Source: Cyanidiococcus yangmingshanensis
Lineage: Eukaryota; Rhodophyta; Bangiophyceae; Cyanidiales; Cyanidiaceae
Direction of reading: 5' to 3'
Assembly (NCBI GenBank): GCA_013995675.1
Contig: VWRR01000006.1
Span: forward strand, 496,001-560,000
DNA length: 64,000 nucleotides
The position numbers were made by a program, and so were the translations under genes. Positions within the stretch are counted from its first letter, which is position 1. Each line of letters begins with the position of its first letter. The notes beneath the pieces are model-generated. The model ran no database searches, was not told the DNA's origin, and saw nothing but the letters and a program-made list of their open reading frames with translations. Positions 7,796 to 64,000 of the stretch are shown piece after piece.

Positions 7796-9410
7796 CTATG
7801 GCTCCGATAAACGACCGGCGTCTTTCGACGACGTCGACTTCTCAGCGCTCAACGCACCGATCACGAAAATTCCACGCCGAAAGCCCTGAATCATCCAGCG
7901 CACAGCCAATGCGGCACGAATAAGCGGCCAGCCACCTTCGAGAAGCCCCAACAGGGCTCGACGTTGAAAGGCACTCCGAGCAACCGCTGGCCAGAAGGGT
8001 ATGGTTGCCTTGGTCCAATCTGAAGTTTGCAAGCCGGTGAGGCCGCTTTGCCAGGCGTAATTCTCAAACTCTTTCAATGCACATAGGTACGGAATACAGT
8101 AATGCTCGCATACTTTTTCATAGATGCGTCGATCAACGTCGTTGAACGGTGGTGGACATGCTCGATGACACCAGGCCGTCATCGCGAGTCGACCGCCAGG
8201 GACGCAGGACACGTGCACATTCCTGCATGAAACGCAGTTTGTCAGGCATGTGTTCTGCACTCTCCATGCTCCAGACAACATCGAACGTATTGTCTGGAAA
8301 CGGCAACTGAAGCGCATTAGCAACCATGGTCTCGACGCGGTCCTCCAGTCGCATCTGGCGAGTGAGCACCTGCGCCCGCGAAGCCTGCACCGGACTAAGT
8401 GTTACTCCAATGACGTGCACATTGGCGCCGTAACGGGTGGCGATATGTCGGGAAGCACCACCTATACCGCACCCAACGTCAAGTACACGAACACGACGAT
8501 TCCCAACGCCCACCGCCGAGCGAAGCAGTGTATCAACGCTGCTGAAGAGCAACAACTGATCCATCATATCGATCTGTGCTTGGTGATGATCCTTGTCGGC
8601 TTTCGAACCATCTAGACCATAAAACCCATGGTGCATGTGTTCGCCCCAGACTTGTTCCCAGAGTTCGGACTGAGTATCGTAGAATTCAGCGATTCGCTGC
8701 GGCAGGGAAGTTCCATTCGCCTTTGTCCGGTCGTCACTCACCATCTGACTGCCTTGTCTGGGCGAGCCAAAGGATTCGAGTCCGAGCGCTCTTCTCTTCT
8801 GCAGCAGCGCCAAGTGCCGACGCTCCATAACCTTTCGCACGAGGACAACAGCAAATAGGAACAGCGCAACCGCAAGCATTGTTGTCGTTCGAGTGTGAGC
8901 GACGAGGCGCTCGCGACCGTGTTGGATCCAGGGTGCTAGCGTGTCCCTGTAGAATTCTCGACCATGCTTCGGTTCAGTCGACGGCACTTTGACGGTGGTA
9001 CGGGCCACTGGAGTCGTTGATCTTGCAGCCGCTACTAGACTGTCATGCCCCTGCGAACGGGGCACCTGGACAGTCACGAGAGTGGACGTGATTAACTGAT
9101 AGGCGCCCGCCTTTGCAGCGCCAGAACCATCGAGTGATGATCGCACCATCAACCGTCGTCTAGAGTTTGGCCAAGAGCAACCATTGCGGATATGAGACCA
9201 ATTGGGGCCCACACGCAGCCTGTTGGGCACCCGAGTGATCGCTGGCAACAACTCGACAAACGCGAGTGGTTGCCTCGATTCGCCCTGAAAACTATGTTTG
9301 AACCAAAGACGACCCTCATGAACCGTCTGTTGGTGCAACCTAAAGCAGTCTGCTAAGACCGAATAGGAAACCGATGAAGGTTGTTGTTGTTGATGTTCTC
9401 TACCTAACAT
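7796..9410 (-). CDS. Gamma-tocopherol methyltransferase-like SAM methyltransferase (one +1 frame change)
   Basis: Two overlapping frames give one plant-type tocopherol C-methyltransferase (VTE4 family, final methylation in vitamin E synthesis). From the ATG at 9410 there is a long, probably targeting N-terminus, a hydrophobic segment (TMLAVALFLFAVVLV), then FYDTQSELWEQVWGEHMHHG, SAM motif I VLDVGCGIGGASRH, TLSPVQASRAQ and VVWSMESAEHMPDK. At LRP the frame breaks; GGRLAMTAWCHR, the conserved continuation, is in the +1 frame and runs to a family-typical tail (FWPAVARSAF). The codons read CGT CCC T GGC GGT, so one surplus base lies at about 8198-8201. Nothing is missing from the protein, so this is not an intron. 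Either a sequence error or a real frame change. Confidence 0.82.
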
Positions 9411-11640
9411 TCTGCAACGTTCAGGGCTTTCGCTGGCCACCGGGCATACACGAAAGCTACAAAACCTGATTCACCAAGGCAATCACTTGCAAGGATGTTG
9501 TTGATCGATACGAGCCACAGCCAGAGTACAGATGAAGGAATGGGACGATCCCTTGCTCAACACAAGTCGTTCCGTGAACAAAAACTCCTTGACGACACGA
9601 TCGTTCAACCACCTGTGTCTGACTTGAGGACTGGTCCTCGAGGGACGAGTATGGCGACGACCGTGCCGACGGTGACGGGACGCATCCGCCTCAAACACGA
9701 TGCTGTCTCGGGTCCTTGATCGATGACTTCCAACTGATTGATCGACATGATAGTGGTTGTTATGGGTTTCAAGGACTTTTCGGTAGTATTTAAAAGAATG
9801 ACATATGTAAGTTTTATGATTGCAAGATGATCGGTACGTCAGGGGGCAGAGAAACCATGTCTTCTGTCTTGGTAGGACGCTCGTCGACTGTCGTTCCCTG
9901 AAGCGACATTGCTCTTGTCAGAGACTGATCTAATCAGGACGCATAAGTTGCATACTATGGAAATAGAGTTAGGTATCGATGCAGTCGTCGATCGTCCTGT
10001 GGCTCGGAGGAGTCTTGCCGTCCGTGTTTCGTAGGACGCGATCTCAGCGACAGTTCGCCGGCACTCGCTTGGTTCGGCGTTGCATATCAGAACAAAAAGT
10101 GATCGTGAAATACCCCTCTTGCGTACAATGCTGGTGACGAAACTTGGTGGAAGGCAAGTTCTACGATCGAGATAGAACTCGGAACGCACGTGACTATGTT
10201 TCTGTACTGGAGAGCGCACGGCCGTTATGGAAACTCGAACAAGAAATTCTAGGCGACAGAGAGGCTTACGGCGAGGTGTGTCGTATTCGTTCCCCAAGTC
10301 TCTGTCTGAATGAATGTCATGAGCGCTGCCATGACGACTGTTTTGGGACGCTGCACCAGACTGCAGGACGAGTTCGGTTCTGTTCAGAAAGGTTCACGCT
10401 TGTCTGTACGAATCGCAATAGAATGGAATCGGAAAGACAGCAAAGGAAGAGGCGACCCTGGTTTGCGCTCACTCACGCTTGCGTACCGTAAAAACTCCAT
10501 CAACGCGTATCAAGAATCCTTCCTCCCGAAAACGAGAGCTTTCCCGCAGATAGAGCTTTCGAATATGTTCGCGGTATCTCTCAGCGTCTGACCTCGTGTG
10601 CTCGTCGACTGGTATTCATCTAGCAATGCCGTGTGTGGTCGATCTTGTCAATCTGTGACCCTGAGCCTTTTTTCTCACTCGTCTGGTGCGTGGAGGCCGC
10701 CTCACCGGAATCAGGAACTCGTCTTGGTGTTTGGCTCGGATTATGAGCAGCATCCGAACGTTGCTTTCATTAGATGGCATTGCCAGTGGAGGCTCGACGA
10801 GACACGCGTTGCGTCAATATACCGGCATTCAAGTATATACAGGGATCCCGTGAGGCTGCGCTTCTCTAAAGAGCAACCAGTTCCGTAGAAACTGGATCTA
10901 CAAAGTCTCATCCGCAAAACGCAGGTATGCATGACATGAACAAAGATGCACATGCCCATCAATGTCAGGCACACGCGCTCTTTCCAAGTGTTTACGGAGG
11001 TGTTTGCAAAGTTTTCGACGCTGCTCTTTTTCGCAACGCTATCCATCGAGTATAGCCTCCAGCACTGACCAGGAACTTGCGCACTCCCGAGAAGTGCTGT
11101 GTTTGCTCACGGGCCGAAAAAGCCATTCCTAGCTTGTGCACCTTCTAATACAGGTCCTTTACTTTCGTCGACAAGTAGGCACAGTTTATGGCTTTTGATC
11201 GTTCCAAAACTAGTTCCGCAGTCCTGTGACAACCAGGCTTCCGTCATCGAACGCGTCCGTCACACGCTCACAAAGCTATTTTGTTGGTTCTACCTCCGAC
11301 TCAAACCAGTTCCTCGAAGACGTTCCGTCGACGATATCCATTCCTTTACGAGTTCCAACCAAGGAATGCTCCACCACGTGACTGCGACCTTCCCAGGCGA
11401 GTATTGTAAACTTCACTCGCAGCAGTTGTTCTGGATGCGGCCCTCCAACAGGCCGCAGGGGCCCTTCAACGTTTTCGACTGTTTGTTCTTGGCGTCTTTA
11501 CGACCAAGTGGTCATTGTAGGTTCCCATCTTCCGATCATTAGGTGTGTGGACAAAAAACCTCAATCGTCGTTGATATAAGGTCGAAACTATCCAACCACC
11601 ATCGCACCAAGTTGTAGCCAGGACGTTTGCCTTGCTGCTG
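9411..11640. other. Long intergenic region between divergent genes
   Basis: 2.2 kb between the methyltransferase and aconitase starts. It must hold both promoters and 5' untranslated regions. A more A+T-rich patch (9780-9830, with TATTTAAAAG) could be a TATA-like element. The largest open frames (around 9839-10297 minus, 10144-10491 plus, 11099-11542 plus) have no early ATG or recognisable composition. No tRNA or snRNA signature found by eye. Confidence 0.4.
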
Positions 11641-20342: not shown

Positions 20343-21879
20343 TTAGCAAGCGTCGAGTGATGCCAGGAGACCATGGCTCTCTTCGGTTCCATCACGGTCT
20401 GATTCCTGACGAGTTTGGGAATGATCTGCTTTCGGGTTGTTCCCGTACAAGAGCAAATCGGGCATCGGCATGCCACGCTGTTCGCGTGAGGGTTCTTCGT
20501 TCCGAGACAGCATGGGTGCGATCTGTCTCTGCTTCTGCTTCATTTCGCTGGACGCCACGAGGAAAGAGGTTGGGCAAGTTTCAGTCTCTTGATGGCTGGC
20601 GGGACTCCCTTGTTGCAGCGGTGACGACGCAAGCATAGCATGACGGGTGTGTTGGTGGCGCGATTTGTGTTTGGACTCTTCTGAAGCGAGACTCCTCCGA
20701 GTCGGTTCTGGTGACGCGCGATCGATGTCTTCGTCGACGCGCTCGACACTGTGACGCATAGAAGGTATCATTCCATCTGATCTCGAATCCTGAACGGGCC
20801 ACCAAGTATCCCAATGCACATTGTTTTGGGGTGAACCCTCGGCATGGGTCGAGGCGGAAGATTCTCCCCCATTGAGCACGTTCGATGGCATGCACTGCTC
20901 CGTGATGAGAAGTGGCTGGCGCACGTACGCTGTCTCGTTTCGGATTGCGTATGTCGCAACGTGTGCAATATCTTGCATCTCTCTGAGTCGGTGCTCCAGT
21001 GGGGCTCCGTTGCTTTCGCGACCTTTGGCGAGATCATTCAGACACTCGTTCAGATCAATGCGCAACGTCTGCAACGCCTGCTCGAGATGGTTCACATTCT
21101 GTCGCAAATTATTACACTCCTGGAATATGCGATAATAGGCCATCTCTGTGGCACACCTTTCGGCATGCTCACTCGCGGCGAATGCCTCCTGCTGTTGCGC
21201 GCGTTCCCTCTCCTGCGCCAGAGCCTCCTTCAGGCGCAGAATCTCCCAGTGTGGATTCGATGCCTCGAACGGCCGTCGTACAATATGTCTCGGACTCTCA
21301 TCGATCAGGGATCGAAAGTCACCCGGTTGCGTCTGCTCCTCCGACGCTCTTGGTAGACGAGAGAGCAGCGCTCGCACGCTGGCCCAACGGGACTTGCTCA
21401 TCACGACGAGTGCATCTGCTGCGGTTGAGGTCTCGGCTCCGGACACCAACTGCTGATCCGCTCGCGCATATCGACGTGAGGATTTCCTCGCCTTCCCTGC
21501 TTTCCGATTTGGAGCTTGGTCAGAGTCCGAGCTGCTGATGCTGGGGCGCACGCAACGATTCCAGTGCGGCGGGTCGGTTCTGGAGCTCCGCAAGCACGCG
21601 TCGCTCCTGTGAACCTTTTCGGTATGATTCGCGTGTGCTTTTCAACAAACTAATCTTCGCTTGCTCGTCAGTTCCCATTGCCTCCGAGGAAGACCTGAAC
21701 CGAGTCCGTCCAGAACGGTTGATAGGCTCTGACGCTTGCCGCTCTGGCGTCAGCAGTGAGAACTCCAATTGGCGCTGAACCTTGCTATCGTTATTGCTAA
21801 ACTTCTTCTTAGAAATCACTTCCGTTTCAGTCATATTCGCCAAACGCTCGAGTACACTAGAGTCAACCGGCGTCAACAT
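20343..21879 (-). CDS. Coiled-coil hypothetical protein (apparent +1 frame change)
   Basis: Two minus-strand frames overlap between 21520 and 21593. The upstream one starts at the ATG at 21879 (MLTPVDSSVLERLANMTETE) and is polar and disordered (QRQLEFSLLTPERQASEP). The downstream one has a clear coiled coil (EILRLKEALAQERERAQQQE, then NNLRQNVNHLEQALQTLRID) and a long Ser/Gln/Glu-rich tail. The offset is +1. If only the downstream frame is used, its first ATG is at 21401 (352 residues). No conserved sequence fixes the junction, so the upstream part could be 5' leader. Confidence 0.5.
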
Positions 21880-27200: not shown

Positions 27201-28452
27201 GCCGGATGCAGTGTGTTGCTCAAGGACGCTGTTTTTGAGTTCACCAGATGCAATCGCGATCATCCCAGTCGGAACGACGATTTCCAGCTCGAACGGACAG
27301 CGAACCGTACTGGTCGCTAGAGCTGCATTCGGCGGATTCAGGCATGGCATCCAGCAAGAAGCCAAACCACTATGTGACTCGACGTATACGTGATCGACGT
27401 GCACAGGCAGAGGCATCTGCTTCGTGTCCCATCGATCGTGGCGGAGTAGTGTGTCAGGTTTCTCCCTTTCGCTTGCGTGTCGGCCGGAGACGTCTCCATT
27501 CTGGCTTGTAATGAAGTGAACCGCAGGCGAATCCGGATACGTTGAGTATTCCACCTCGAGACATAGTTCAATGGAGCTTGCAACTCTGTCCTGGGGTTTC
27601 GTTTGGGCAACTTGAGCGTCATCTCGTTCGTGTCCGTGAATCAATGGGCGGATCACGACTTGAGCGGTTTCAGACGCATTCCTCTATCATTCCGCGCGAG
27701 TCTGTTTCCCTTATTCCGAGAGCTGAGTTCGATCCAGTTGTTGCTTTCACAACTTGCTGCGTCTCGACGCGCCCGGTCTCGTCTGTCTTGGCGAGCGCTT
27801 GTTTATCAGCCAGGAGCGTTGTCCATGAAGCGAGCACTTGGAGCTCTCCATGCGCGGCGAGACGTGCTTGCCGAGCAACCATCATTTCGAGCTCTTCCAG
27901 TGTTGGAGGCGGATAGATTCGATCAGCTGCCGAGCGCAAAACATCGATGTCGTCCAGTGGGCTCGTACATCGATTGTTGACAGGTACGCCGTTCAAGCGC
28001 ACAGAGCGAATGGTGCAACAGCGCAAGTTAACCCGCAGTTCGAGCACATCAAGTCGCTCGGAGAATCGACCTGCTGAGCCAATCAGGTCTACAGGACAAG
28101 AAGCCTTAAAGAATAAAGCTGCTCGTCCATGCAGTTGTTGTCGGGTGAAATCAACATCGATCCCAAGTTGCACTCTCTCGAGACGAGGCCTTACTGGCGT
28201 CTCCGTTCCAGTTTCTACGCGAGCACCCTCGGCGCCCGCTGCAACTTTTTTGTCCACTATTTGGAAGACTCGTTCATCCTTGGGAGGCGAGACATCTGCC
28301 CAGTTCAGAGACACGCCAGTGTGGTCGCCATCCGCGGCCGCAGGCAACTTGGTCGGTCCACGACGCAGTTTCTGGTCCTCTGCTTTGACGGCACGAGAAG
28401 CGTTATTTTTCCTTACATGCTCAGCTCTGACTGTAGAAGTCAGCTCTCCCAT
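24216..28452 (-). CDS. TAF2: TFIID subunit TAF2 (one apparent +1 frame change)
   Basis: About 1,410 residues of an M1-aminopeptidase-like TFIID subunit that helps bind core promoter DNA. The N-terminal frame starts at the ATG at 28452 (MGELTSTVRAEHV) and encodes the first beta domain (VQLGIDVDFTRQQLHGRAALF). The rest is in the +1 frame: SGLASCWMPCLNPPN, FELEIVVPTGMIAIASGEL, VTYFCLPGFVRQLVNTVDFL and PHSYAGGGLIILSSMLLFSD match TAF2; the zinc-ligand HEXXH of true peptidases is absent, as expected. HEAT-like repeats and a Ser/Thr/Pro-rich tail follow. The frame change lies in 27670-27686. No GTAAGT donor is nearby, so an extra base is likelier than an intron, though an atypical intron is not excluded. 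Confidence 0.85.
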
Positions 28453-29765: not shown

Positions 29766-32248
29766 TTATACAGATGGTCGTCGAGCGCTGGCAACACTTA
29801 AGGCTTGAATAGGTCTTGCGAGAATCTCCGCTCTTTTCGTGTTGTACAGCTGCTCGAGCGCATTTTTGCAGGATTCATAAGCTTCATCCAGAGCCTGAAG
29901 CTCGCGCTCCACCGCTTGGGCTGCTCGATGCACACCACCAAGACCTATGCTGGCCTGTTCTTGGACGGATGCTCCTCCAAGCAATATCGATTCCATTGAC
30001 TTGACAATATCCTTCATCGAGGATGCCCGTTCCAAGCTCCGAACCAGTTCATGTTTCGGTCCCGAAGGCGCCTCGTCCTTATCACGAGCACGATCGCTAC
30101 TGATTGAGTTACCAAGTGACGAGACGCATCCAGATGAAGGTACCTGTACCGAGTATGTCCGCTCTGAGCGCGATCGACGACTCGTCGGGACAGAACCATC
30201 CTTCGTGCTTCTCGACGGCGCCTCTATTCGACCATCTTCTGGCCGTCCTGGACCTTCATGGTTGGTGTGGCGCTCTTCATTGGAGAGATTCGCCCACCAG
30301 CCCCGTTCTATGAGATCCAAGGGAGCGTGCTCGAGCTCGCCTCGGATCATTGCATCTGCCGCGGCGTTGCCCAGAGCCCGGCGTCGGTTTCGCGCATCAT
30401 TTGCCGGAAGGAACTCGAAGCCGAGCATGCAGCGACTAATACGCTCAAGCCAGCTGTGAACCCTGCTTGTCATCTCCACGAAACGAATGTAGAGCGCTCG
30501 CGATTGACGCATCAGCTTAAGATGATTGCTGCCAAGAAAGAGCTGCTGCTCGAGGACGGACTCGACCAGTATATTGGTCGTCGTGAATAGCTGCATCACG
30601 TCGTGAACAATCAAACGGGCAGCCTCCATGATGATCTCATTGTGGACGTTCACGGAAGCCATGTTTTCGCTACTGGGCGTATTCGGTGCAGGGTTCATCG
30701 CAGCTTCGAGCACAGTTTCCAAACGTACGGCAGTCGCAGACTCCAACTCCAGCAGAAGCACTGGGATCACCTCTCCAAGGGCACGTTCGAAAGGGATTCG
30801 TTCCCTGAGCTCTTCGCCAGATGCCGAGGAAACAACACCCATTTCATCAAAGTGACTCGTGGTCTCCCCAGGTCGTGTTGGTGGGGAAAAACTGTCGCCG
30901 AGTTCCGCGACAATGCTTGACCGTTGCCGCTCGCCGAGATAGAGCAAGCGAAAACTCTCCAGACGCACCCATAGATACTTTGCATAATGTCGCACAAAAA
31001 GGGAACAGGCAGTTGCCTCTGGTCTTGTGCGACTCTCGTCACGGAAAGAGGTCGCCAACAGTCTCCAAATTCGTCAGGTTCTGGGCCGACAGCGGCGAGC
31101 TAGTCCCTTGACCATCACTGGAGAGGATGCTCACGGCATTGCCCGTGCTGCTGGGGTTGCCACCACGACCCACGAGTCGACGCGGGCGCTCACGTTGACC
31201 GCGCGGCGAATGACTGTTTGCATACAAGACCAGTCGGGAGAGCAGCTCCAGAAGCGGCGACGCAACAGGCACTCGTTGTGAGACGATCGTTTCCGTCTCG
31301 ATCGAGTCGGTCTCCGTCTCATTTGGCTGAGCAGCACGCTGGCCAAGATCATAGTAGACTGCCCAGAGGCGAAAAACAATACTATCCGCGTAAGTGGCTG
31401 CATCACGCATGAGCCGATGGGCCACCATCAACACCTTACAGACGATACGCCAGTCGTGTTCCATTCCATGCCGCCACAACTTACGAACAATATCACCACA
31501 GAGCATGACCCGTTCCATCGCTGTGGCCACCTCTTCTGCTCGCTCGCTGCTATCGGCGGGCCACGGAGCAGCCTGCTGATACCGATAGCGATGATGAGGC
31601 AGCCGTTGGACATGAAATGTCGAGACTTTGTTGAGGCCGTACTGAGGTTTTGAGCTCATGACGGCCACGGACGTTCTTCGCGTGGGCGCTGAAGAGCTGG
31701 CACGACCGCCTCCAACTACAGCGTCTGCGTTCGAGGCCACCTGACGAGCACCTCCCGTCGAGTTCTGCGTTGTCGTGCTCGTCGTCTGTTACACCGACTG
31801 TTGCAGTCACATTCTGCGCCGTATCTAGAAGATAGAAAAACGCTTCTCCACACCCCTGGAGCGCAGCGAGTAGCGTCAGCACGTACTTCTCCTTTGGCGC
31901 AGTGTACTTGGGTTTACTCGCTTTGAGCACGGCTGCTTCGACATCAGACGAAAAGGCCGCTGAGATCTTACGCGTTAGACGTTTGGTGGTGTTTCCCAGT
32001 GTCGTCGTCTGTAAGGGTCTTGAAGGTGCCGCAGATCTCCCAAGTTCGGAGTGGTCAGGACCATGAACACCAACTTCATTATCATCTTGCCTCGACGGAG
32101 CTGCAGAACGTGCTCCACGACCCGTGACTGCACTCGCCGAAACGATCCCAGACACCTGACCCGTTGTGTTAGCATTGGCCCAGGTAACGACCCTTCCGCG
32201 TCCACTTACACCTTCATTCGTACTGCTTTCAGTATCACCCAGTTTCAT
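29766..32248 (-). CDS. ANTH-domain clathrin adaptor, AP180/CALM-like (two apparent +1 frame changes)
   Basis: Three successive minus-strand frames together give one ANTH protein of about 825 residues. Frame 1 from the ATG at 32248 carries RKISAAFSSDVEAAVLKASK and APKEKYVLTLLAAL, the start of the ANTH fold with its lipid-binding PxEKH-like loop. Frame 2 carries CGDIVRKLWRHGMEHDWRIV and CKVLMVAHRLMRD (the DWRVVLKTLILIHRLL segment of the family). Frame 3 carries SLFVRHYAKYLWVRLESFRLL. Both junctions are +1: 31550-31788 and 31039-31073. ANTH proteins bind PI(4,5)P2 and clathrin in vesicle formation. A long low-complexity insert splits helices 2 and 3. The junctions lie in unconserved linkers, so an intron at either cannot be excluded. 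Confidence 0.72.
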
Positions 32249-35140: not shown

Positions 35141-35158
35141 GTGTGTGTGTGTGTGTGT
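35141..35158. repeat. (GT)9 dinucleotide repeat
   Basis: Uninterrupted GT run in the intergenic region, a simple microsatellite able to adopt Z-DNA. No other significance seen. Confidence 0.9.
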
Positions 35159-35357
35159 GAAGAGTATGCGGTCTATTTCAGAACATGTCTCCCGTTTTCT
35201 TAGTCGGATACGGAATCATTTCATGCTAATTGTTCATGAGGAAATACGCATCGACCACGATATGATGCATTAGACCGTCCATGTGCCCAGAAACGCACGA
35301 GCAAGTAGCCCTTCACGACAGGAACTCCAGCACGCTTTATTTGTTTGATTCATTCAT

Positions 35358-38077: not shown

Positions 38078-39411
38078 TCAATGCATGCACTGCTGCATCT
38101 TTTTTTGCAGCAAGGTTGCAAGTTGTTGCAATCCTTCCATCGGGTTTTCCACTGGACGTGCATTCACGTTCGCGAAATTCTTCAACTTGAGTGCTTGTTG
38201 GACAGCTCGCGCCCACTGCCCAGAGAGGAGTTCTTTAGTGCTCAGCTCAGCACTGAACATGCTCAAATCAGCGCGAAGAAAGTCCTCTTCGACGAAGATC
38301 GGTCGGCGAACGTATACCAGAGGTGTTCCTGCCTGCAAGACACTCTGCGCAGATACCGTATCCGAGTTTGCCGAGGACGACATCAGCTGCTCGTACCAAG
38401 TCGGGAACATAGCCATGATCTGTGGAGTCGACCAGACGAACTCGTGGAGAGGAGGCTTCTGAAAGGCCCTCAACGAGCACCACGATAACCCATGGAGAAT
38501 TCGCCATTCGAACCAGATCGACGCTTTCAAGGAATGGACGGAGCAAGGCGTCAGCGTTACCGAACAACGCCTTGCAATCAAAACTACCGAAACAAACCAA
38601 GAGCAGCATGGTGTCAGCGTTGATGCCCAAACTGTCTCGGGTCTCCTGCCGACTGTGCTTCCATGGTCTCGAGACAGGCGGTACCGCGAACACGTCGCCA
38701 GGAAACGGCTCCAACGGGGGTACGATGCCCGGTGTTAGTTGCACCCAAACTGCGGCAAGGGCCTCGTCCGCGACCATACGTTGGATTAGAGCACGATACC
38801 TTGGTGTATCTAGCGCTGGGTCTGCCTTGATGAAGCCCGCATAGATCGCACTGAAGAAAAAGTTGGTCACGAAGAGGAAACGATCCGCCAAGGCGGCCTC
38901 CTTTGCAGCGACCGCAGCCAAGGTCACTGCATCGGTCAGCAGCAGCTGCGGTCTCAGAAGCCGCAAGAAACTAGCTTCTCTCTGGACAAGCTCCGTTCTA
39001 TGCTGCTCTATGTCGGTATATGCCGCCAAGGTTGCAGCCGCATCGATCGCCAGGGCGTTTATCTGGATGCAACCGACGTCAAGTTGGATGCAGCGTACCC
39101 GTACCTGATCTAAAAGAGTCGATAGAGTTTCCGTATCAAAACGTTGTACCGCGTACGCTTCCGCGAGTCGAGCTAGCTGGGCGCAGGACGGCGTCTTGGG
39201 GTATGGTCGTACACAGAAGGACCAGTGATCGTTGACAAAGCAGCTCGAATGTGATGGCCACGGATCGAGTCAAGTGTCCCCAACCGTGCGCGGTGACGTA
39301 ATAAATAACCAGCGGTTGTGATCGTTTTGAAGGACGCCAGTCGTCCAGGTCCCCGAGAGCGTCCCGGGCGAGGTCCTCATCTATCCGGTCCGAGGCCAAA
39401 CCGGTGGACAT
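38078..39411 (-). CDS. L-arabinokinase N-terminal-like glycosyltransferase domain (two +1 frame changes)
   Basis: Three minus-strand frames combine into about 440 residues resembling the GT-B-like N-terminal half of plant ARA1: PLVIYYVTAHGWGHLTRSVA (family YYVTGHGFGHATR), VRCIQLDVGCIQINALAIDA, ASFLRLLRPQLLLTDAVTLA, RFLFVTNFFFSAIYAGF, VLGKLGYG, then GTPLVYVRRPIFVEEDFL and LSGQWARAVQQAL. The second change is pinned by GYGICAE-VLQAGTPLVYVRR: codons GCA GAG T GTC TTG, extra base at 38342. The first lies at about 39170-39220 (CCCC run). The GHMP sugar-kinase half of ARA1 is absent; the gene stops after the first domain. Start at the ATG at 39411. Role unproven; sugar or nucleotide-sugar binding is likely. 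Confidence 0.78.
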
Positions 39412-43697: not shown

Positions 43698-46600
43698 ATG
43701 GCGCTTTCGCTGGACTTGTTAGGCTCGCTCCCGCTTCGAGAAGGCGAAGAGGTCCAGCAGGTGGCGGTGGCTGGACGTCGCCATTTGTGGGTCAGCACCA
43801 GTCACGACACTATTCAGCGCTGGCGATGGGAGTGTTCATCCGCAAACCCATGCGGCGGCGATGCACAGCAACGTTGCTGGCGCCTTTGAACGAACGAGTG
43901 GCCACTGGCGAGCGGAGGCTGTGTTTCGAGCCCCGGGCCCGATTGCTTATCTTACGTACCTTGACCACTGGGGCCTCCTAGCACAAAGCAAGGACTGTTG
44001 CTCTTTTTTCATTGCCGGCCACTGGAGACGGGTCAAATCAGCTGATTGGAAAGAGCAGGTCACAGCGGCTGTGGAACTTGATGGGAGCGCGTGGACGTCG
44101 CTGCAACACGACTTGGGGGTCGCAACACAACGAACGCCTCAGTTGGGCGTTCGCGGGAGTCCAGTGACTGTGCAGTTATTGCTTGGCACTGCAAAAGGTG
44201 CGTTGTATGGTTGTAGCTTGCCTGACTTGTCATTGACCTGCCTTTGGAGGTCCCAACTAGATGTAGCGTCTCAAGAGCCTATTTGTGGCATCCGAACCAT
44301 TCAAGCGTCCCGTACCGGCTCACCTGGGCATGTTCTATTGGTGGTCGCAACCCCATCAAGGCTGTATTTCGCTTTGGACCCTTTCAGGTCTGGTCGATCA
44401 CTCTCAGAGTCACTTGATCTGGATCGGTTTATCGAAGCTTCACCGATGGCATCGACCGCGCGGCCTTCCGATGACGAGCCTTTGATAGGTGTCTCTCACG
44501 GAAGTCGGATTGGCGTGCTCTTTGGAGACTTGAACTGGCTCAGCGCTCTTGGCATCCTGCATGTTCACGTGAATCGGTCTGCGCTTGCAGATGGTATGTC
44601 TCAGGTGCTTCAGGAGCGATCCTGGGTGAGTTTGCCGCAGTCCAAATCACAGATGATTTTTGGAGTCGCGGAGGTCTCGCCTGGCTGCCTGTTGCTGGGC
44701 ACACGCGTCGTCTCTGCATTTGGATGGTCGGAGAAGCTGGCCGATCGAGTAACTGAGGCAGCGCCGAAACTTGCAGGTTCTGGGGAATCAGGTTCAGTGA
44801 CCGACACTCGATTCCAACGAAATTTCCACGGAACCGAGGAACGGGATTTGAGCGTCTCTCTCAACGAACAACGGATTGTCCGGGACAAGTCCTTGAAAGA
44901 TTCATCCACGAAACGTCTATCGCCAACACAGGTTGAGCCGCGCATGGGAACGAGTCCGAGAATTCCATACCAAGACATGCCTGTGGCAGACGCTCGAATG
45001 AAATTCATTGATTTTCGAGAACGAGCCTCTTCTAATGCTGTATCAGATTCAATGAGCGAATGCAGAACCGGGCTGAAGCCATTCACGATCCAAGATGATC
45101 CTGGGAAAACTGCGTGTCGTGACCAGTCGTCTGTATCAATGGTTGGGTCTGAACCGACGATCGTCGACCGAGAAACCTCTGTAGCGATGGACTCGAGGAG
45201 CGAACGATGCTCTCTCGGTGAAGCAAACCAGCATCTGGATGGAGTCACTGGCTTCATGGAACTTTATTGTCTGGCGGATGGACGTTTGCTTGCCCAGGTG
45301 CCGCTTGAAGCGTCAATGGGGATCCCTGTTGCGCTGCTTCCAGACTGCACCTTGCTGAGCGCTAACGCAGCTTGGATGTGCCGAATCGCAACCGAACTTG
45401 TGGTCTCGGTTCGCACGGCTTATGCCCATCAACATCGGTTTTCGGAAGCATTGGCGACTTGCCAGACAATAGAAGAGAAGGAGCATCTCTTCCTCGAATA
45501 TGCTCGAGTGTTGCTCTGTGCAGGAGACGACAGCGAGCGCGCAACATCTCCGAATGGTGCTCTATCGAAGGAGGCGCTCCAGAGGCAAGCTGCCTTTTAC
45601 CTGGCCCGGTGTCGCTCGCGGATGCCTGGCGATGCGCTGCGGGAGCTTATTCACGAGCACCGAGTCCGCATGGGTGCTGTGCTTGCCTATCTAGAGCATC
45701 GTCTGCCGATCGAGACGGATCCAACAGCGATTGCAGCACTTGAGACCTTTCAGCAGGCACTGCATACGGAAATGAGCGGAGCAGATGCCGATACTTTTCT
45801 TGCTCAGCCGTGTATTCTACGCAAGTGCTCAAGGTGCGTTACACAGTTGCAACGCCTCTATCGCCTCGCCCTACCAGGTTCAGCATACCAAGCGCACTGG
45901 CGGGAAGCGATCCTCGATCGCGTCGCTCGGATACAACCTTTTTCCGAGGAAACGTCAGCGTCTATATCGAAGACGAGCACCAGCGCAAGGATGCTGCTTC
46001 AATGGGGAGCTATGCTGCTCGCTGAGCAGGGCAATGAGGCCGACCTTCTCCACCTCATTGAACAGCATGATGCGGTCATTCTCAGTGATCGATCGCTGGC
46101 CGGCTTCCTCCTGTGGGTGACGAAACGCTTCGACCTATGGCATGTTCAGATCGAGTTGCTACTCATTCTGGACGAGAAGGTAGAATCTGGAGTGGGATAT
46201 CGGGATGAGGCCCTCGGTGTCGTATTTGCGCATGCGTCGGAGATGACCACGGATGCGGGTGCAGAGCTGGAGACGTTGCTTGATCGCATCTGTAGTGATG
46301 ATCCCACACGCTGGATGAAGGCATTGAGCCTAGCACCCATGTTATGTCGTGCTGCAGTATGGCAGCGCGCGATTCTTGAGCGACACGTGCTCAGTCTCGG
46401 GGAGGCGCTTGCGAAGGAGCTCTCGATTGCCCGCCGAGACCGCAAAAGAGTGTCCGCTGCGGGCAGATGCTCTATGCAGCCTCTTTGCGGACGCGGAACA
46501 GCATCTGGCTGCCCAACGAGCGCAGCTAGACGCCTTGGCTCATGTGACCGAGCAACTTGAACGAGCACTTCAATGTCTGCTGGATACTCGGGGCTATGCC

Positions 46601-46954
46601 GAGGTCGAATGGCGACGATGGCACACGAGCAAATCAACCGTAGAGCTGGAGACACCTCCAACAGTGACAAGTTGGTTTGTGGGTCCAGCCAGAGGACTGC
46701 TACCTCACTGGATGACGCTTTCGATTGACCCAGAACGATTGAGGAACGCAACCTTCGCGTCTGCAGGAGCGTCCGGCGCCAGTCAGGCCCACGGGGGAAC
46801 GAATCCCGCAAATCGACCATTCGTTAGCAGCGTCGATGACAGCGTTCCGCAACAGGCATCTTTGGAGGCTCAGCTGCGAGGCGTTGAGGACCAATCCGCC
46901 GCGCTTTGGTTGCATTCATCATGGATCGAGTCTCTAAACAAGCCCTATGAGTAG
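43698..46954 (+). CDS. VPS18: VPS18/Pep3-like HOPS-CORVET subunit (two apparent +1 frame changes)
   Basis: About 1,085 residues. The first ATG at 43698 opens a beta-propeller start (LSLDLLGSLPLREGEEVQQV). After a +1 change (43828-43889) the main frame carries LLGTAKGALYGCSLPD, PLIGVSHGSRIGVLFGDLNW (the VPS18 signature region), then the helical solenoid (AYAHQHRFSEALATCQTIEE, RMLLQWGAMLLAEQGNEADL, LWHVQIELLLILDE). A second +1 change (about 46420-46560) leads into a coiled coil (AEQHLAAQRAQLDALAHVTE) like the one before the RING in VPS18. The tail that follows has no Cys-x2-Cys pairs, so the RING finger is not visible. Family role: vacuole/endosome tethering with VPS11/16/33. Confidence 0.78.
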
Positions 46955-52406: not shown

Positions 52407-53441
52407 GGCGTGAACGCACACACACACAGGGAAGTGTACGACAAACCCAAACGTTTTTCTGTACACGCAATGGGGCGCGATCGTCCGCAAGGCCGTGCCC
52501 CACGGATGCACGCAGACGCACGCACGCATCGGCTCGTACGCGCGTGCAACGCCATGTTGATTGACCATGGCGCGCGGCGATCGCCAGACATGTTCCAGGG
52601 GCGGTCCGCGAACGCCGGCCTTGCCGGAAACCGAGTCCGGCTCGACGCGCAAAGCCGGCGGTGGCCGATGCATGGACACGTGCGCAGGGCCGCCAATGCT
52701 CGATCGTAGGCGCACATCAGGCCGAGCCGCCGCGTGCGTTTGCGCGCGCCTTTGCTGCAGACAGATCGCCTTTGGCGCGTCGCGCGGACGCGGGCCTCGG
52801 CGCAGAACGCTTCGCAGATTGGGTGCTCGCGTGCGAATGCAGACACGCAGTGGTCCATGGTCTCTACTCGTTGGTCGGGGCGACCATCGGCCTTCGGTGT
52901 CCGTGTAGCGCTCGGCGGAGTTGATGCTCATGGGCGAGCCCGTGTCCGTCGGGATCTTTCGGCAGTGATAGTGAACCGTTGAGTCACTGGAGATGAGTAT
53001 CCATGAGGTTTGATGGCTCCAAATCGGTTGACGAGGGTCCAAACCAGGTGTCCCATGCCAGTTCTGCGCGCACCACGGCGCGTGCAATCCGCAGTGTCCG
53101 CACTTTATCCCGGAGTAAATCAAAGAGTTTAAGCGCACCTGAATCCGAGTCGCGTGAGTGTCCGCTTTTGGTATTATCTTAACGTTGCATGGTTCCGGTC
53201 TACGGGCCTAGTTCTTGCAGACGGTTCGGGACGAGCACCCCGTGCTGTCGACAAGAACCATCCTGACAATTCGCTCGAGACCGGGGCTCGGTTGGAATTC
53301 GGTGAAAGGTTACGGCGCTGAGGCCGCGCTCTCGACACACACTTGCATCGTGGGCTCCTTCCATGCTGGTCCGTCGGCCAGTTTGGATCGGACGGACGCC
53401 TTCGTGGAACGCAAGATGCCCCGTTATCAAATTCGAATGAA
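52407..53441. other. G+C-rich island upstream of BiP
   Basis: About 1 kb containing the BiP promoter. 52480-52920 is markedly CpG- and GCGC-rich (many CGCGC, GCACGC words) and open in several frames on both strands, as expected of high G+C. It could be a promoter island or an unrecognised RNA; I could not match SRP RNA or another known structure. Confidence 0.45.
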
Positions 53442-55413
53442 TCAGCTTTTTGCATCGGGCGATTTTTCTGAATGAACATACGGTTGTAAGAGTGCTTCAA
53501 GAGGCAATTGCTGGGCGAGTATCGCAAAAGCGCGGCGAAACTCATGTTGTAGTAGACGCACCGAGTCTTCGCTGCAGACGCGTCCCAAGTCGTGGGTCAT
53601 GTCGAAGGGGTCCTCGATCGAGAAAAAATGACGTTGGAGCGCGTGTGCTGCTCGCTCTCGCTGATATCGCTGACGTTGCAGTCGCATTCGTTCCCGATCT
53701 CGATGAGAGACACAGGTGCCCCCCTCCGGGGACGAGGTCACGTTCACGGATTGCTCCCTTGCCCCGTCACCGTTGCCGCCTTGAGACGAATCTTCACGGA
53801 GATGTGTCTCGTTCGTCGGTCTATGATGCGGGTGCTCGCGATCCCCCTGATTGTGATGGACCGCTGCCCCACCCGATTCTGCGGCTTCGTCAGTCGTCTG
53901 AGAGTCAGGTCCGTTCTTTTCCAGTTCACGCTCGTCATCATCAATCTCATCGTCGGTTTCATCACCGCTTGCGTGGGTATACAGCTCACCGATACCATCC
54001 ACGGCGTCATCGGGTTTGGCCGCGTCCTGACTCGCACGATCCTCTCGATACCAGCCCCGTTTTTTCTTACTAATTAAGCGACCGCAACGTATGCTGACCA
54101 CCATTTCATCATAGTTGAACTGATGCCCGTAGAAGTAGAAAAACCCAGCGAGGAGCAACATGACGGACATTTCGTTGCGCACTGGCATCTGGATATCGGT
54201 ACGATCGAGGAAGTAATCGTTCACCTGAGTTTCATCCAGAATCGCTTCCGTTTGGGGGCACTCCACCAGCTCTTCTACGGGCGTCGTTCCATTCGCGTTC
54301 ACCAGTGGCAGTCGCTCAACCCGGAGGGCTTGAAGGCACGGCAAAACGGGTGGCGACACAAGTTGTAAATATTGGATGAGAAGTATGAGATACGAGTAAC
54401 TGCTGAGTGTTCCAGCGAAGGGTTCGTTCAAATCCCGAGCAACCGCCCAACGTTTGATAAAGATCGCAAGCGGCCGAACCCGCGGATCGATTCGGATATA
54501 GGCTCTCAATAGGGCTGTGTTACGCACCACAAAATCGTTATTCACCTGCACATCAACTTCAATGTCGCTTCGCAAATCGTGGAACTTGACTAGTGGTACC
54601 CTTGTCTGTGTAATGATTTGTACATTGGCGAATTCGTGGCGCCGGCGTCTGAGCAGACGTCCCAGATCGCCGACAACGTCCCGCCGAAAGTCATCCAGCG
54701 AGTATTTGTCATCCTGATGCTCCGCTCGCAATATCTCCAGGGGAGCCATCGGCGCCACAAAATTCACATCGAGGTCGCCGCCTTTTAATAAAACACCTGT
54801 AGCCGTACTGCCGTAGACATCGACACGACAGCCGCGAAATCGAGAAGAGGCTACTTTTCGCAAATGTCTGGCGAGTCGTGCTCTTCGCTCAAACTCGGCC
54901 ATCCAGTCGGGGTATGATGACTCTGCCACGATTTCGTGAAAACGGCGCACTTGTCGCTGTAAGTGCTCGGCAGAGATAGTCCACGTATCTGTGTAGGTTA
55001 GCGATGAACGGAGGGAGGCGCCACGTTCCAGCACTTGGATCCGCTTCCTTCGAAGGCGCTCCAACGTCGTTCGCTCTGGAGTTTTCGGATGTGCTGCATC
55101 AGATTTGGCCGCGTTTTCGCCCAGGCGGCCACTGCTGCCGCTCCGTTCGAGACCTGTGCCGCAAACGACCGTCTCGTACGTGCACTTGGGCCAACTGATT
55201 CGTTACCGCGTTCAACTGCTCCGACACTCCCTGCTCCCCTGTTCGTATGGATGTTTCTTCGACGTCATTTCGTAGATCCACTCTGGTCGTGTTCGGTGCA
55301 CACACGGTCTTGATAGTTTCAGCGTATAGAGACGACTCGGTTCCAGAGCTTGTTCGCGGACGCGTGCGTGCCGAACCGTCTTCACAGGACGAACGCAACG
55401 ATTCCATCGCCAT
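53442..55413 (-). CDS. Non-canonical poly(A)/poly(U) polymerase, Cid1/TUTase family (apparent +1 frame change near start)
   Basis: The catalytic core is uninterrupted: VDVYGSTATGVLLKGGDLDV (GS motif with DxD metal ligands), DLRSDIEVDVQVNN (third Asp), VRPLAIFIKRWAVARDLN, LSSYSYLILLIQYLQ, and HFFSIEDPFDMTHDLGR (nucleotide-recognition motif). An acidic, Glu/Asp-rich insert (about 360-460) sits inside the PAP-associated region. The core frame has no ATG before the domain; an upstream frame with ATG at 55413 (MAMESLRSSCEDGS) joins by +1 within 55099-55202 (around CCT GGG C GAA). Family role: uridylation or oligoadenylation of RNAs for decay or small-RNA control. The N-terminus is the uncertain part. 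Confidence 0.82.
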
Positions 55414-56409: not shown

Positions 56410-58476
56410 TCAGTAGACTCTCTGTGCTGGTGGGAAGGGCGCCTGCTCGGTTTCATCCAGACTCCAAGCGTGCACCGGGCGATAGTCAATGCGCACTGGC
56501 GATTTGTCCGCGGGCAGGGCATCATGTGACTGCACCCATGCCAACGTGTGCTTCATCCAGTTTTCATCATCACGTTTGGGAAAGTCATCACGTAGCATGG
56601 GCGCCTCGAGATTCCTTGCGTTTCTCTGCACTATGAATCGTTGCAAGCGGCGTTTTGGAGCAGATTCTGTAGCTCCAGTGTCTCTATTAAATCCGTGTTC
56701 CAGATGAGCGTCCGATCAGCGATTCGCACGTCATTCAAGTCCAGATAACTATTGATCGAGGAGCTTACAGCCCTCTTCCAAGGTCTTTTGAGCGCGGAAA
56801 ACGGCGGCGTGATTCTGCATCAGTTTCTGCATTCGAAGGCGCAGATCCGCAGTCTTGATGCTGCCGTTCGCATAGCGGAATCGGTCCAGGTTCGCGATTG
56901 CTTCCTCGCCACAGTCTGGCGCAAGCGGCTTGTGTGGCATTCCTGGGTGGACCCATTCGGCAACTGTTTGAGCGCACGCGCGCCCAAACACGACAATATC
57001 GAGCAGGGAGTTCGCCCCGAGGCGGTTCGCTCCGTGCACTGAGGCGCATGCCGCTTCGCCAGCCGCCAAAAGGCCCGGCACCACCGCATCAGGATCTGAT
57101 GGAGTTGGTCGCAACACCTCTCCGCGCCAATTGGTTGGAATCCCGCCCATGTTGTAGTGAACAGTTGGTAACACAGGAATCGGCTCCTTGGTTACATCAA
57201 CGTTAGCGAAAATCTGTGCCGTCTCCATGATGCCAGGCAAGCGCTCTCGCAAAATTTCTGGCGGGATATGGTTCAGAAATAGATGAATATGGTCTTTCTG
57301 AGGGCCGCATCCACGACCTTCCATGATCTCCAGGGTCATTGCACGCGAGACCACATCGCGGCTCGCCAGATCCTTGGCACTCGGTGCATAGCGTTCCATA
57401 AAGCGTTCCCCAACACCGTTACGCAGAAGGCCGCCCTCACCGCGGCAGCCTTCAGTGATGAGGCATCCGGCCCCGTAGATGCCCGTAGGGTGAAATTGCA
57501 CAAACTCCATGTCCTGGAGCGGGATATCAGCTCGAGCCGCCATAGCGTTACCATCACCGGTGCATGTATGTGCAGAGGTTGCGGAGAAATACGCTCTCCC
57601 GTAGCCACCTGTGCAAATGATGACTGCATGCGACCGAAAACGATGAATGGTGCCGTCCTCCATGCACAAAGCGATGACACCTCGACATGCGCCGCTCTCA
57701 TCCATAACGAGATCCAGACCAAAGTATTCGACAAAAAAATCCGCATTGTGCTTCAGACATTGGCCATATAGCGTGTGCAGGAGAGCGTGGCCAGTCCGAT
57801 CGGCAGCCGCAGCACAGCGATACGCCTGACCACCCTTGCCGAACCGCAGACTCTGTCCACCAAACGCTCGTTGGTAGATGCGCCCGTCCTCTGTGCGTGA
57901 AAACGGCACGCCATAGTGTTCGAGCTCAATCACGACTTGCGGTGCCTCACGACACATGTAGTGGATCGCGTCCTGATCTCCGAGCCAGTCGCTGCCCTTG
58001 ACGGTGTCATACATATGCCAGCGCCAGTCGTCTTCAGTCATGTTTCCGAGTGCAGCGTTGATGCCTCCCTGCGCTGCCACCGTGTGTGAGCGAGTCGGAA
58101 AGAGTTTTGTTACGCAGGCAGTCTTGAGACCGGCCTCTGCGCAACCAATGACCGCGCGCAGCCCGGCTCCACCTGCGCCGAGCACCACTGCATCGTACTC
58201 GTGCTCAACGATCGGATACGAGGGTTGCGTTCGCGTCGTGATCCAGCGCCTCAATTGAGATGAGGCTTTATGGACAGACTCTGACTTCCATTCGGTAGAG
58301 CGGAGTGGAAACGAAGGTTGTTGCCACGCTTGAAGCAATCCTCGGTAAAGCCCAGTTCCGAAGAAACGCATACCACGTTTCGGTACGAGCGAACCAAAAC
58401 GCCCCTCCAGGCGCGACTTGGGCCAGCTCGGAAAACCGTGCAAACGTGAAGCAACTCTCAGTGGAAGGCTCGTCAT
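56410..58476 (-). CDS. SDHA: Succinate dehydrogenase flavoprotein subunit (three +1 frame changes near the C-terminus)
   Basis: Complex II / TCA cycle. ATG start, mitochondrial presequence, then the FAD-binding [37 protein letters not shown] (His for covalent FAD), [32 protein letters not shown] and [20 protein letters not shown]. The main frame stops after EEGCKLLDQ, but the missing C-terminus follows at once in successive +1 frames: [20 protein letters not shown] and [11 protein letters not shown]; then [17 protein letters not shown]; then [19 protein letters not shown] to the family-typical end PPAQRVY. Family alignment pins surplus bases near 56757, 56648 and 56593. All parts of a full SDHA are present and intact. 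Confidence 0.9.
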
Positions 58477-60060: not shown

Positions 60061-61202
60061 ATGAGCCGGAGCGTTGCTCTGCGCTTACGGCTACGTCAGC
60101 CTGATGATTGGCATGTTCATTTTCGTGACGGTGCCGTTATGCGAACGGTAGCACCCTTGACGGCGAGGACACTTTGGACGAGCGCTCGTGATGCCGAACC
60201 TCACGCCACCAGTTCGTACGGTGGCCCAAGCGCGAGCGTACCGCGATCGAATCCTCGCAGCTGTGGGATCCGTGGTCACATTCAAACCGTATATGACACT
60301 CTATCTGACAGAGCAGACGACGATCGAAACAGTTGAGGAGGCCAAGGCGTGTGGCTTCATTCTCGCCTTTAAGTGGTACCCTGCGGGTGCAACGACGAAC
60401 GCTGATCTCGGCGTTCGGTTGATCGAGCGACTATTCTCGGTTTTGGCTGCCATGGAGGCCCTGGATCTTGTGTTGTGTGTTCACGGCGAGTCGACAGATC
60501 CAAATATTGATGTGTATGATCGTGAAGAGCATTTTATTCTTCACGAGTTGCAGCCAGTTCGAGAAGCGTTTTCCTCGACTTCGAATCGTCCTCGAGCATA
60601 TCTCGACGGCCTTTGGAGCAGAATGGGTGCGCCGAAACCCGAGCAACCGTCTAGCAGCAACAGTAACTCCGCAGCATCTGCTGTGTAATCGAAATGATCT
60701 GCTTGTCGGAGGGCTCAAACCGCACTACTACTGCTTGCCGATCTTGAAGAGCGAACGCGATCGTCAGGCGATTATGGATGCTATCCGAAATGACCACCAG
60801 GGCCGATTCTTCCTCGGTTCGGACTCTGCACCACATGTGCGTTCACGAAAGGAGTCTGCATGTGCCAGCGCAGGATGTTTTACGGCCTTGACAACGCTAG
60901 AGCTCTATGCTGAGGCATTCGCGAATGCAGGAATACTGGATAGGTTGGAGCAGTTTGCGTCCATTAACGGAGCCAAGTTCTACGGTCTAGAGCCGAGTGA
61001 GGAGCGCGTAGAACTCGTTCAGTGGTCGGAACCAATCATGCAGATTCCAGAAAGTGTCCTTGTTCAGGATAAAGACGCTTCGGAAACAGCACAAGGCGAA
61101 GAGGCAGATGCAGGCGCTGCGTCGGAATTGCGGCCGTTTTGGGCCGGTTCTTTCCTCACTTGGAGCGTCGAGCGTATCTCTTCGTCTACCATGAAGCCCT
61201 GA
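60061..61202 (+). CDS. Dihydroorotase, bacterial PyrC type (two +1 frame changes)
   Basis: Third step of pyrimidine synthesis: carbamoyl-aspartate to dihydroorotate, zinc enzyme. Frame 1 from the ATG at 60061: LRQPDDWHVHFRDGAVMRTV (HxH metal ligands). The +1 frame then gives GRALVMPNLTPPVRTVAQAR, the carbamylated-Lys region ILAFKWYPAGATTNAD, and CVHGES. The next +1 frame gives FEKRFPRLRIVLEHISTA, TPQHLLCNRNDLLVGGLKPH, LGSDSAPHVRSRKESACASA to the end. Family alignment pins the surplus bases: ACA CTT T GGA (60173-60175) and CAG CCA G TTC (60557). All metal ligands are present in order. It is the stand-alone PyrC enzyme of plants and bacteria, not the animal CAD domain. Confidence 0.9.
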
Positions 61203-62333: not shown

Positions 62334-62433
62334 GAGCGCTTTCAAGCGTCCGCGCACAGTCGCGAATCGTCCACGCTCACTCTTGCCCGACTTTTATAGT
62401 CTCGCTCATACACAATCTCTATCTCGTTTCAAT

Positions 62434-64000
62434 ATGTGATTTTGTTGAGAGAGGAATTCAACCTTGGGTTCCACAACACAGGAGCAGGAGCGCGTACCGT
62501 TCCAGACCGACACGGTCGCGTACAGCGGACGGGCGAATCGGTTCCGCCGCCCCGTACGACGCTCGTCTGCAAGGTCGACTGCTCGCGACTAACGAGCTAG
62601 CTGCAGTTACTTTGGTTGACGGCGAAGCAACAAGACGTGCTTGTGGCGCGTCTGGGTCTACAATCAAGTGGCAGCTGGGTCAGCTGCATACGAAACAAGA
62701 GATAAACGGGGCACCTCTGGGCATGGAGGGCGCTCGTGAAGTCCTGTGTCGCAGTCGCGAAAGAACGCTGTTGCAGCAGCTCGAGTTGACTCGTCCAGCA
62801 GTAGAGGTAGACTTGGCACGCGTGCAGATCAATGATGATGCCGATGCAACGATAAGCGATCTTCCATCTGTTCCGCATTCGTTGGCGTCGAACGCGATCG
62901 TCAGATTTCTGCCCACCAACGGGAGCCTTTTGCTTTTTGTTCATCCGGATAGCCGCGCGTGTACGGTCTTCCGCCTCGGGAACGCGGGTGCGGCGCTCGA
63001 GACTGTGGCCAGCGTTGGGGGTACCGCAGCGGACGAGTACATTCAAGACGCGGCCTTCTCTCCAAAGGGCACGTTTGTGGTAACGTGGTCCCGGCCGCAC
63101 GAGCGTCTGGTAGATGGGAACCTGCGGGTCTGGCGATGTACCACTGGGGTGCCTGTGCGAGCTTTTCTTCATCGACAGTATCGTGCGAGCGCTTTTCCAT
63201 ATGTTCAATGGACTGCCAATGAGCAGTTTGCCTTTCATGCGGTGACCAATGCCCTCGATGTCTACTCTGGACAGGACCTCGACTGAGCCTCGACTGCTGC
63301 GGATGCCCGTTCCAGGTCTTGCCCAGTTCGCTGTTGCCCCTATGGCTGTTGCCGAGACCTGTGACTGAGAGTAGTCTGGCCTATGTTGCCACGTTTGTTC
63401 CTGAAACAACCAATGGAGCTCCTGCGAACATTCAGATCTGGGCTGTGGGGACAACCGTCTCGGTGCGGAGCCGCCATGGCACCATCGATGGCATGAGTGC
63501 AACATCTTCTGAGGCCCTCTGTGCTGTTGTCGTGGCGTCTCGCCGAGTGTTTCGCGCTCAGTATGTGGACTTTTACTGGTCGCCAAAAGTTTATGGTTCT
63601 GGTAGTTACCCATCGCTGGTCGTACGCACCAACCATGATTATGATGTAACCGGCCGCTCGTACTATGGAGAATCGAGCGCCTACTTCCTGCAGCCGAATA
63701 GCAACTCATGTGGCGCTGGAGATGTTTCCGGTGACGGAATATCGTTGCCGTCTGGTCCTATCCACGATGTGGGTTGGTCTCCGACTGGTCGCGAGTTTGT
63801 TGTGGTTCACGGGCCGCCACCTGCTCGAGCGACCCTGTTTCATGCAGGTGGCACTGCAACGTTCGATTTCGGTACCGGTCCACGGAATCGTGTTTCATGG
63901 TCACCTCATGGGCGTTTTCTTGCGCTCGCTGGCTTTGGTAGCATGTCCGGTAATGTGCAAGTATGGGATCGAAACAAGAAGAAGATCATTGGCCAGTTCA
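62434..64000 (+). CDS. EIF2A: Translation initiation factor eIF2A (3' partial, two +1 frame changes, start unresolved)
   Basis: WD-repeat/beta-propeller factor that can deliver initiator tRNA independently of eIF2. Frame 1: YIQDAAFSPKGTFVVTWSRP, NLRVWRCTTGVPVRAF, ASAFPYVQWTANEQFAFHAV. +1: MPVPGLAQFAVAPM. +1: YVATFVPETTNGAPANIQIW, SYYGESSAYFL, GPIHDVGWSPTGREFVVVHG, ATFDFGTGPRN (family FDFGTGPRN) and LALAGFGSMSGNVQVWDR, running off the window. Both frame changes sit at or just before the same sequence, GAC TGA G (63281-63287 and 63363-63369). No in-frame ATG precedes the first domain; the nearest ATG (62434) is followed directly by TGA. N-terminus therefore uncertain. Confidence 0.85.

What the first reader, a model, noticed from the sequence alone, without database searches (positions are those of the whole stretch)
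7796..64000. Many conserved genes carry single-base frame changes, all in the +1 direction
Tocopherol methyltransferase, TAF2, ANTH adaptor (2), adenylate kinase (2), arabinokinase-like (2), VPS18 (2), poly(A) polymerase-like, SDHA (3), dihydroorotase (2), eIF2A (2) and two hypothetical genes each continue in a frame reached by skipping one base. I found no case of the opposite sign. At eight places family conservation pins the surplus base: CCC[T]GGC, GGG[C]AGC, GAG[T]GTC, CTC[G]ATC, GCC[G]CTT, GCT[A]CGT, CTT[T]GGA, CCA[G]TTC. There is no shared slippery heptamer and no stop codon next to most of them, unlike Euplotes- or antizyme-type frameshifting. Several lie beside short runs, others do not. 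Counts per gene look roughly proportional to length. Insertion-biased read or consensus error is therefore most likely, but these genes are essential and otherwise intact, so +1 frameshifting or nucleotide-removing RNA editing is a real alternative. CDC48, CCT-eta, aconitase, BiP and SCYL have none.
Basis: partly seen in the sequence, partly recalled or inferred. Interest (0 to 1): 0.8.

Follow-up and report, generated by a model that had tools for sequence, protein, structure and literature searches.

The report
Two alleles printed side by side
The one-base frame changes in these algal genes are most likely errors in one published genome assembly, made where two chromosome copies differ and both bases were written down; the genes look normal in another strain of the same species.

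Summary
Conserved genes in this window, and elsewhere in this 12.07-Mb, 20-contig genome (red alga Cyanidiococcus yangmingshanensis), carry single surplus bases. Frame-aware alignment to non-self orthologues found 34 insertions and 1 deletion in 22 genes; against same-species references (strain 8.1.23 F7) it found 23 insertions and 0 deletions in 13 genes. At those 23 sites the F7 protein reads straight through, so programmed frameshifting and RNA editing are very unlikely. The surplus bases are not random: in 23 of 34 the extra base and a neighbour are alternatives that leave the amino acid unchanged (null 0.46), 18 of these 23 are transitions, and an allele-pair model beats random insertion by 10-13 log units (0 of 300 null sets). 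At two of four testable non-synonymous sites the alternative residue is the one relatives carry. Best explanation: a consensus of two haplotypes kept both alleles of some SNPs. The public annotation of this assembly carries truncated proteins and pseudo-introns as a result. Not a biological feature.

The parts
8195..8201 (-). frame change (+1) in the methyltransferase gene 7796-9470
   Evidence: conserved ...RVLRPGG of solved methyltransferase 3bus spans it; the two open frames are offset by one base; no close orthologue fetched
21531..21534 (-). 4-base word read as one codon, hypothetical gene 20346-21834
   Evidence: F7 protein P0233, 484 of 496 residues identical
27681..27684 (-). 4-base word read as one codon, TAF2 gene 24219-28452
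   Evidence: metagenome orthologue P0146, 1340 of 1411 identical
29769..32248 (-). ANTH-domain gene, two +1 changes near 31041 and 31768
   Evidence: coding model; the assembly's own protein P0136 skips 9 and 8 codons plus one base at these places; no independent orthologue
36069..36072 (+). 4-base word, adenylate kinase/DUF3054 gene 35817-38053
   Evidence: F7 protein P0139, 734 of 745 identical
36235..36238 (+). second 4-base word, adenylate kinase/DUF3054 gene
   Evidence: F7 protein P0139
38333..38336 (-).
   Evidence: metagenome orthologue P0169, 408 of 443 identical
39186..39189 (-). 4-base word, same gene; place less certain
   Evidence: metagenome orthologue P0169; the next residue does not match
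43698..46954 (+). VPS18-like gene, two +1 changes proposed
   Evidence: coding model only; not tested by an orthologue
55152..55155 (-). 4-base word, poly(A)-polymerase-like gene 53445-55407
   Evidence: metagenome orthologue P0134, 629 of 654 identical
56593..56596 (-). 4-base word 3, SDHA gene 56413-58476
   Evidence: F7 protein P0001 and C. merolae P0002
56645..56648 (-). 4-base word 2, SDHA; readable as Ala in F7 or Val as in C. merolae
   Evidence: P0001, P0002, P0003
56748..56751 (-). 4-base word 1, SDHA
   Evidence: P0001, P0002
60166..60169 (+). 4-base word, dihydroorotase gene 60061-61199
   Evidence: metagenome orthologue P0159, 354 of 379 identical
60563..60566 (+). second 4-base word, dihydroorotase gene
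   Evidence: metagenome orthologue P0159
63246..63365 (+). middle-frame segment of eIF2A bounded by two +1 changes
   Evidence: flanking frames match solved eIF2A; middle frame open here

Best explanation
An assembly artefact of a particular kind. The DNA that was assembled held two haplotypes (a heterozygous diploid, or less likely a mixed culture), collapsed into one consensus. At a small share of SNPs both alleles were printed next to each other instead of one being chosen. That adds exactly one base, hence the uniform +1 sign, and the extra base follows the SNP spectrum, hence mostly synonymous, transition-rich pairs. Shown here: intact same-species orthologues, the sign bias, the allele-pair signature. 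Inferred: that the sample held two haplotypes, that noisy long reads were used, and that short-read polishing fails at such sites because neither one-base deletion reaches a majority.
For: 34 insertions to 1 deletion, 23 to 0 against same-species proteins. F7 proteins run uninterrupted through 23 of 23 sites. 23 of 34 sites read as an adjacent pair of synonymous alternatives against 0.463 expected (p 0.0098); 18 of these 23 are transitions against 0.516 expected (p 0.008); no significant homopolymer preference (22 of 34 against 0.506, p 0.12). Allele-pair model better than random insertion by 12.8 lnL fitted, 10.3 with kappa 4 and omega 0.2 fixed; 0 of 300 null sets reach either. Two of four testable non-synonymous sites carry the residue of both relatives compared, chance about 0.05-0.07 per site. 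The species was first described as cell-walled (Liu et al. 2020), and cell-walled forms are diploid (PMC13062707, passages); strain F7, without the extra bases, is haploid (PMC13353863, passage). Precedent for consensus sites matching neither allele: PMC8445201, section 19.
Against: 11 of 34 events have no synonymous reading and the fitted omega (0.43) is high for polymorphism, so some events may be ordinary errors. With kappa and omega both 1 the pair model is no better than random insertion, so the case rests on the synonymous and transition excess. Same-species events alone give a gain of only 6.2. One deletion exists (P0132). Genes for searches were chosen partly by predicted frame change. 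Reads, ploidy and assembly method of this assembly were not seen. Two of the four testable non-synonymous sites show no match.
Confidence: 0.85

Rival explanations
1. Plain insertion-biased long-read consensus error unrelated to heterozygosity: random bases inserted at random places and never polished out.
For: Explains the sign. Simpler. 11 of 34 sites have no synonymous reading; with a stricter omega (0.1) the mixture leaves 18-25% to random insertion.
Against: Synonymous and transition excess; 0 of 300 random-insertion sets reach the observed gain; alternative residues shared with relatives at two sites.
Confidence: 0.12
2. Homopolymer-length error or slippage that duplicates a neighbouring base.
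For: 22 of 34 sites can be read beside an identical base.
Against: Expected 1.0 under that model and 0.506 by chance; the mixture fit gives it 0-7%.
Confidence: 0.01
3. Real extra bases decoded by +1 ribosomal frameshifting or removed by RNA editing.
For: Essential, otherwise intact genes; no transcripts or peptides were available here to exclude it directly.
Against: F7 of the same species has uninterrupted proteins at 23 of 23 sites, from a genome reported with 36 introns in all (PMC9812998, table passage). The words at the sites are diverse.
Confidence: 0.01
4. Real heterozygous or fixed one-base insertions (pseudogenes) in this strain.
For: One-allele 1-bp insertions that truncate a gene occur in diploids (PMC8445201, passages).
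Against: Would hit SDHA, CPS, HslU and others three or four times each while the rest stays conserved, and would not give one sign only.
Confidence: 0.01

Closest known systems
Neither-allele errors in the collapsed PacBio assembly of Trypanosoma brucei Lister 427 (PMC8445201)
   Same: About 7,000 error-suggesting variants, 98% indel or complex; correcting them raised ordinary heterozygous calls by about 5,000, in proportion to sites heterozygous between two non-reference alleles; broken reading frames result (section 19).
   Different: That text does not say that both alleles are printed side by side or that the errors have one sign; there the reads were available.
Insertion-biased long-read error without polishing
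   Same: Single surplus bases, frameshifts in most long genes.
   Different: Predicts no synonymous or transition excess.
Euplotes-type +1 frameshifting
   Same: Many genes, +1 direction.
   Different: Needs a slippery stop context conserved among relatives; here words are diverse and the same species lacks the events. Features of the known system are recalled.
Antizyme +1 frameshifting
   Same: +1 direction.
   Different: One regulated gene with a conserved stop and stimulator (recalled); here many unrelated genes.

Membership tests
Collapsed-haplotype (allele-pair) assembly artefact | Same genes intact in an independent assembly of the species | tested here: met
   13 same-species references, 23 sites, each read through; P0157, a zero-event case, may be this assembly's own copy
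Collapsed-haplotype (allele-pair) assembly artefact | Extra base and a neighbour form a plausible SNP pair, mostly synonymous and transition-rich | tested here: met
   23 of 34 synonymous-compatible, 18 of 23 transitions; 0 of 300 null sets
Collapsed-haplotype (allele-pair) assembly artefact | Source DNA held two haplotypes | not testable with these tools
   Reads not held; cell-walled type description and diploidy of cell-walled forms from a review
Collapsed-haplotype (allele-pair) assembly artefact | Reads show two single-base alleles, never both bases | not testable with these tools
   Reads not held
Random insertion-biased consensus error | Position and identity of the surplus base random relative to codons | tested here: not met
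Homopolymer-length error | Surplus base repeats its neighbour | tested here: not met
   22 of 34, chance 0.506
Programmed +1 frameshifting (Euplotes or antizyme type) | Frame change conserved in close relatives | tested here: not met
   0 of 23 sites kept in F7
Programmed +1 frameshifting (Euplotes or antizyme type) | Shared slippery or stop motif at sites | tested here: not met
   most common 4-base word 4 of 34; words tallied only, no motif search beyond that
Nucleotide-removing RNA editing | Extra base in DNA, absent from mRNA | not testable with these tools
   no transcripts of this strain held

The most novel reading that the evidence does not exclude
The extra bases are really in this strain's DNA and are tolerated by efficient +1 frameshifting or mRNA editing that other strains of the species do not need.
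Probability: 0.01. Interest if true: 0.95.

Novelty: not a real feature. Interest (0 to 1): 0.15.

Why it matters
Proteins of this assembly (F1559_) are in NCBI and UniRef, and truncated proteins and false introns will mislead gene-content, intron and family studies. The coding model insertions and 39 deletions in 264 kb; with its errors that points, very roughly, to a few thousand events genome-wide. The pattern also offers a cheap diagnostic for other collapsed assemblies: surplus bases whose neighbour is a synonymous alternative mark a source with two haplotypes, and short-read polishing may not remove them (inferred).

Tried and rejected
Ab initio coding model alone: coding signal is weak (0.14 nat per codon against background) and in orthologue-covered genes 4 of its 5 deletion calls did not stand as deletions, so it was not used for the sign count. 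A first likelihood comparison with faulty bookkeeping was replaced. The idea that the window is the 8.1.23 F7 or NIES-4659 Ha1 assembly was dropped when proteins on contigs of this assembly appeared as F1559_ beside CCYA_. tRNA and Rfam scans of the window gave no hit.

Dropped before counting: 13 proteins of the assembly itself, and 13 redundant or distant references (P0002, P0126, P0130, P0131, P0133, P0137, P0138, P0143, P0147, P0149, P0183, P0203, P0260); where these 13 showed a frame change it was an insertion (P0183 showed none). Other listed hits were not aligned. Of 39 genes queried (1, 20 and 18), 22 gave a counted reference; the 38 were chosen by predicted length and preferentially by predicted frame change, so the event density is biased upward. 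One search listed 120 of 2016 hits.
Full report
Identity. The window is G000:C17:496001-560000 of a 12,072,675-base, 20-contig genome. Telomere repeats AATGGGGGG lie at the ends of the contigs listed, the repeat given for Cyanidiococcus and Cyanidioschyzon in Table 1 of PMC13353863 (passage); size, contig number and GC fit Cyanidiococcus yangmingshanensis. Protein searches list proteins on contigs of 671,970 and 1,044,797 bases, exactly C17 and C1, as F1559_ proteins of that species; a second assembly (CCYA_, strain 8.1.23 F7) has the matching chromosome at 667,632. I infer, but did not verify, that F1559 is strain THAL066 of Liu et al. 2020 (that paper not seen; THAL066 and PRJNA564651 from passages of PMC10272599; a paper search for F1559 found none).

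Observation. An aligner that allows 4-base and 2-base codons was written and applied to the fetched references. F7 SDHA matches 681 of 687 residues end to end with three 4-base words and no gap. Over 23 counted alignments (22 genes; 16,608 aligned residues, one gene counted twice) there are 34 insertions and 1 deletion; over the 13 same-species alignments (9,799 residues) 23 insertions and none of the other sign. Four of the 13 have no event; one of these, P0157, is a shared cluster that may be this assembly's own copy. The one deletion (P0132, C1 near 179361, beside a three-codon length difference from a metagenome relative 91% identical) stands as a counter-example. In the window alone there are 12 pinned insertions and no deletion.

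Not frameshifting or editing. At 23 of 23 same-species sites the F7 protein has an ordinary residue and goes on. F7 was assembled from PacBio reads, corrected with Illumina reads until no conflict remained, and is reported with 36 introns in all (PMC9812998, sections 23 and 24 and a table passage), so the sites are not bridged by introns there; I saw F7 proteins, not its DNA. C. merolae SDHA is continuous too. Words at the sites are diverse.

What the extra bases are. For each site I asked which single bases can be left out without changing the protein, and whether two different adjacent bases both qualify, as they would if both alleles of a synonymous SNP were printed. That holds for 23 of 34; random insertion into the same genes gives 0.463 (p 0.0098). 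Of the 23, 18 are transitions (null 0.516, p 0.008). Placement beside an identical base is near chance (22 of 34 against 0.506, p 0.12), so this is not homopolymer error. An allele-pair model (transition weight kappa, non-synonymous weight omega) fits better than random insertion by 12.8 lnL with both fitted (kappa 13, omega 0.43), by 10.3 with kappa 4, omega 0.2 and by 7.1 with kappa 4, omega 0.1; with both at 1 it is no better (-0.2). None of 300 random-insertion sets reaches the fitted value or the 4/0.2 value. Same-species events alone gain 6.2. Mixtures give the allele-pair share as 0.75-1.0 over four settings; random sets give a mean of 0.09 (95th percentile 0.35, maximum 0.81). Where no synonymous reading exists, two of four testable sites (SDHA A610 with alternative V, CPS V512 with alternative D) show the residue found in both relatives compared; chance per site is 0.05-0.07. 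SDHA C576 and P0134 R85 do not.

Why two haplotypes. A review states that cell-walled Cyanidiophyceae are diploid and that this species was first described, by Liu et al. 2020, as cell-walled (PMC13062707, passages). The F7 assembly, from a strain called haploid, lacks the extra bases at the sites tested; heterozygosity of another isolate is 2.19% (PMC13353863, passages). In a collapsed PacBio assembly of Trypanosoma brucei about 7,000 variants suggested errors, 98% indel or complex, and correcting them raised ordinary heterozygous calls by about 5,000 (PMC8445201, section 19). That short-read polishing would see two different one-base deletions at half frequency each, and correct neither, is inference. 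A mixed culture of two strains would look the same.

Consequences. Of 13 proteins of this assembly examined, 8 run gap-free to the first stop of one frame (SMC3 is truncated: 633 residues against 1,298 in F7); the other 5 skip 8 stretches of 7-22 codons, each next to a one-base shift, as false introns would.

Against my reading. 11 of 34 events have no synonymous reading; omega is high; one deletion exists; genes were chosen partly by predicted frame change; reads, ploidy and methods of this assembly were not seen; ANTH, VPS18-like, eIF2A and the methyltransferase lack close orthologues here. Paper searches: Cyanidiococcus with frameshift (one unrelated paper), Cyanidiophyceae with indel errors and PacBio (listing), heterozygous consensus artefacts (listings, none). 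I found no report of this defect in this assembly in those searches.

Noticed in passing
window 29769-32248, 20346-21879, 38271-39411; also G000 C17 and C1: Public proteins of this assembly are truncated at the shifts or skip 7-22 codons there, as false introns would; 5 of 13 examined have such gaps.
   Followed up: partly
G000:C1 near 179361 (locus L020 near 9361): The only orthologue-supported deletion, beside a three-codon length difference, in the gene matched by metagenome protein P0132.
   Followed up: partly
window 35817-38053: Two adenylate-kinase matches joined to a DUF3054 domain in one protein, also in F7 (CCYA07G2175).
   Followed up: no
window 5819-6955: SNF5/SMARCB1 domain and a GATA zinc finger in one open frame.
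   Followed up: no
window 50349-53207: The HSP70 domain begins only at residue 318 of a 953-codon open frame; whether the upstream part is translated is unknown.
   Followed up: no
window 34749-35177, 41727, 47540 and other coding-model deletion calls: Eight deletion calls of the coding model in the window were not resolved by orthologues.
   Followed up: no
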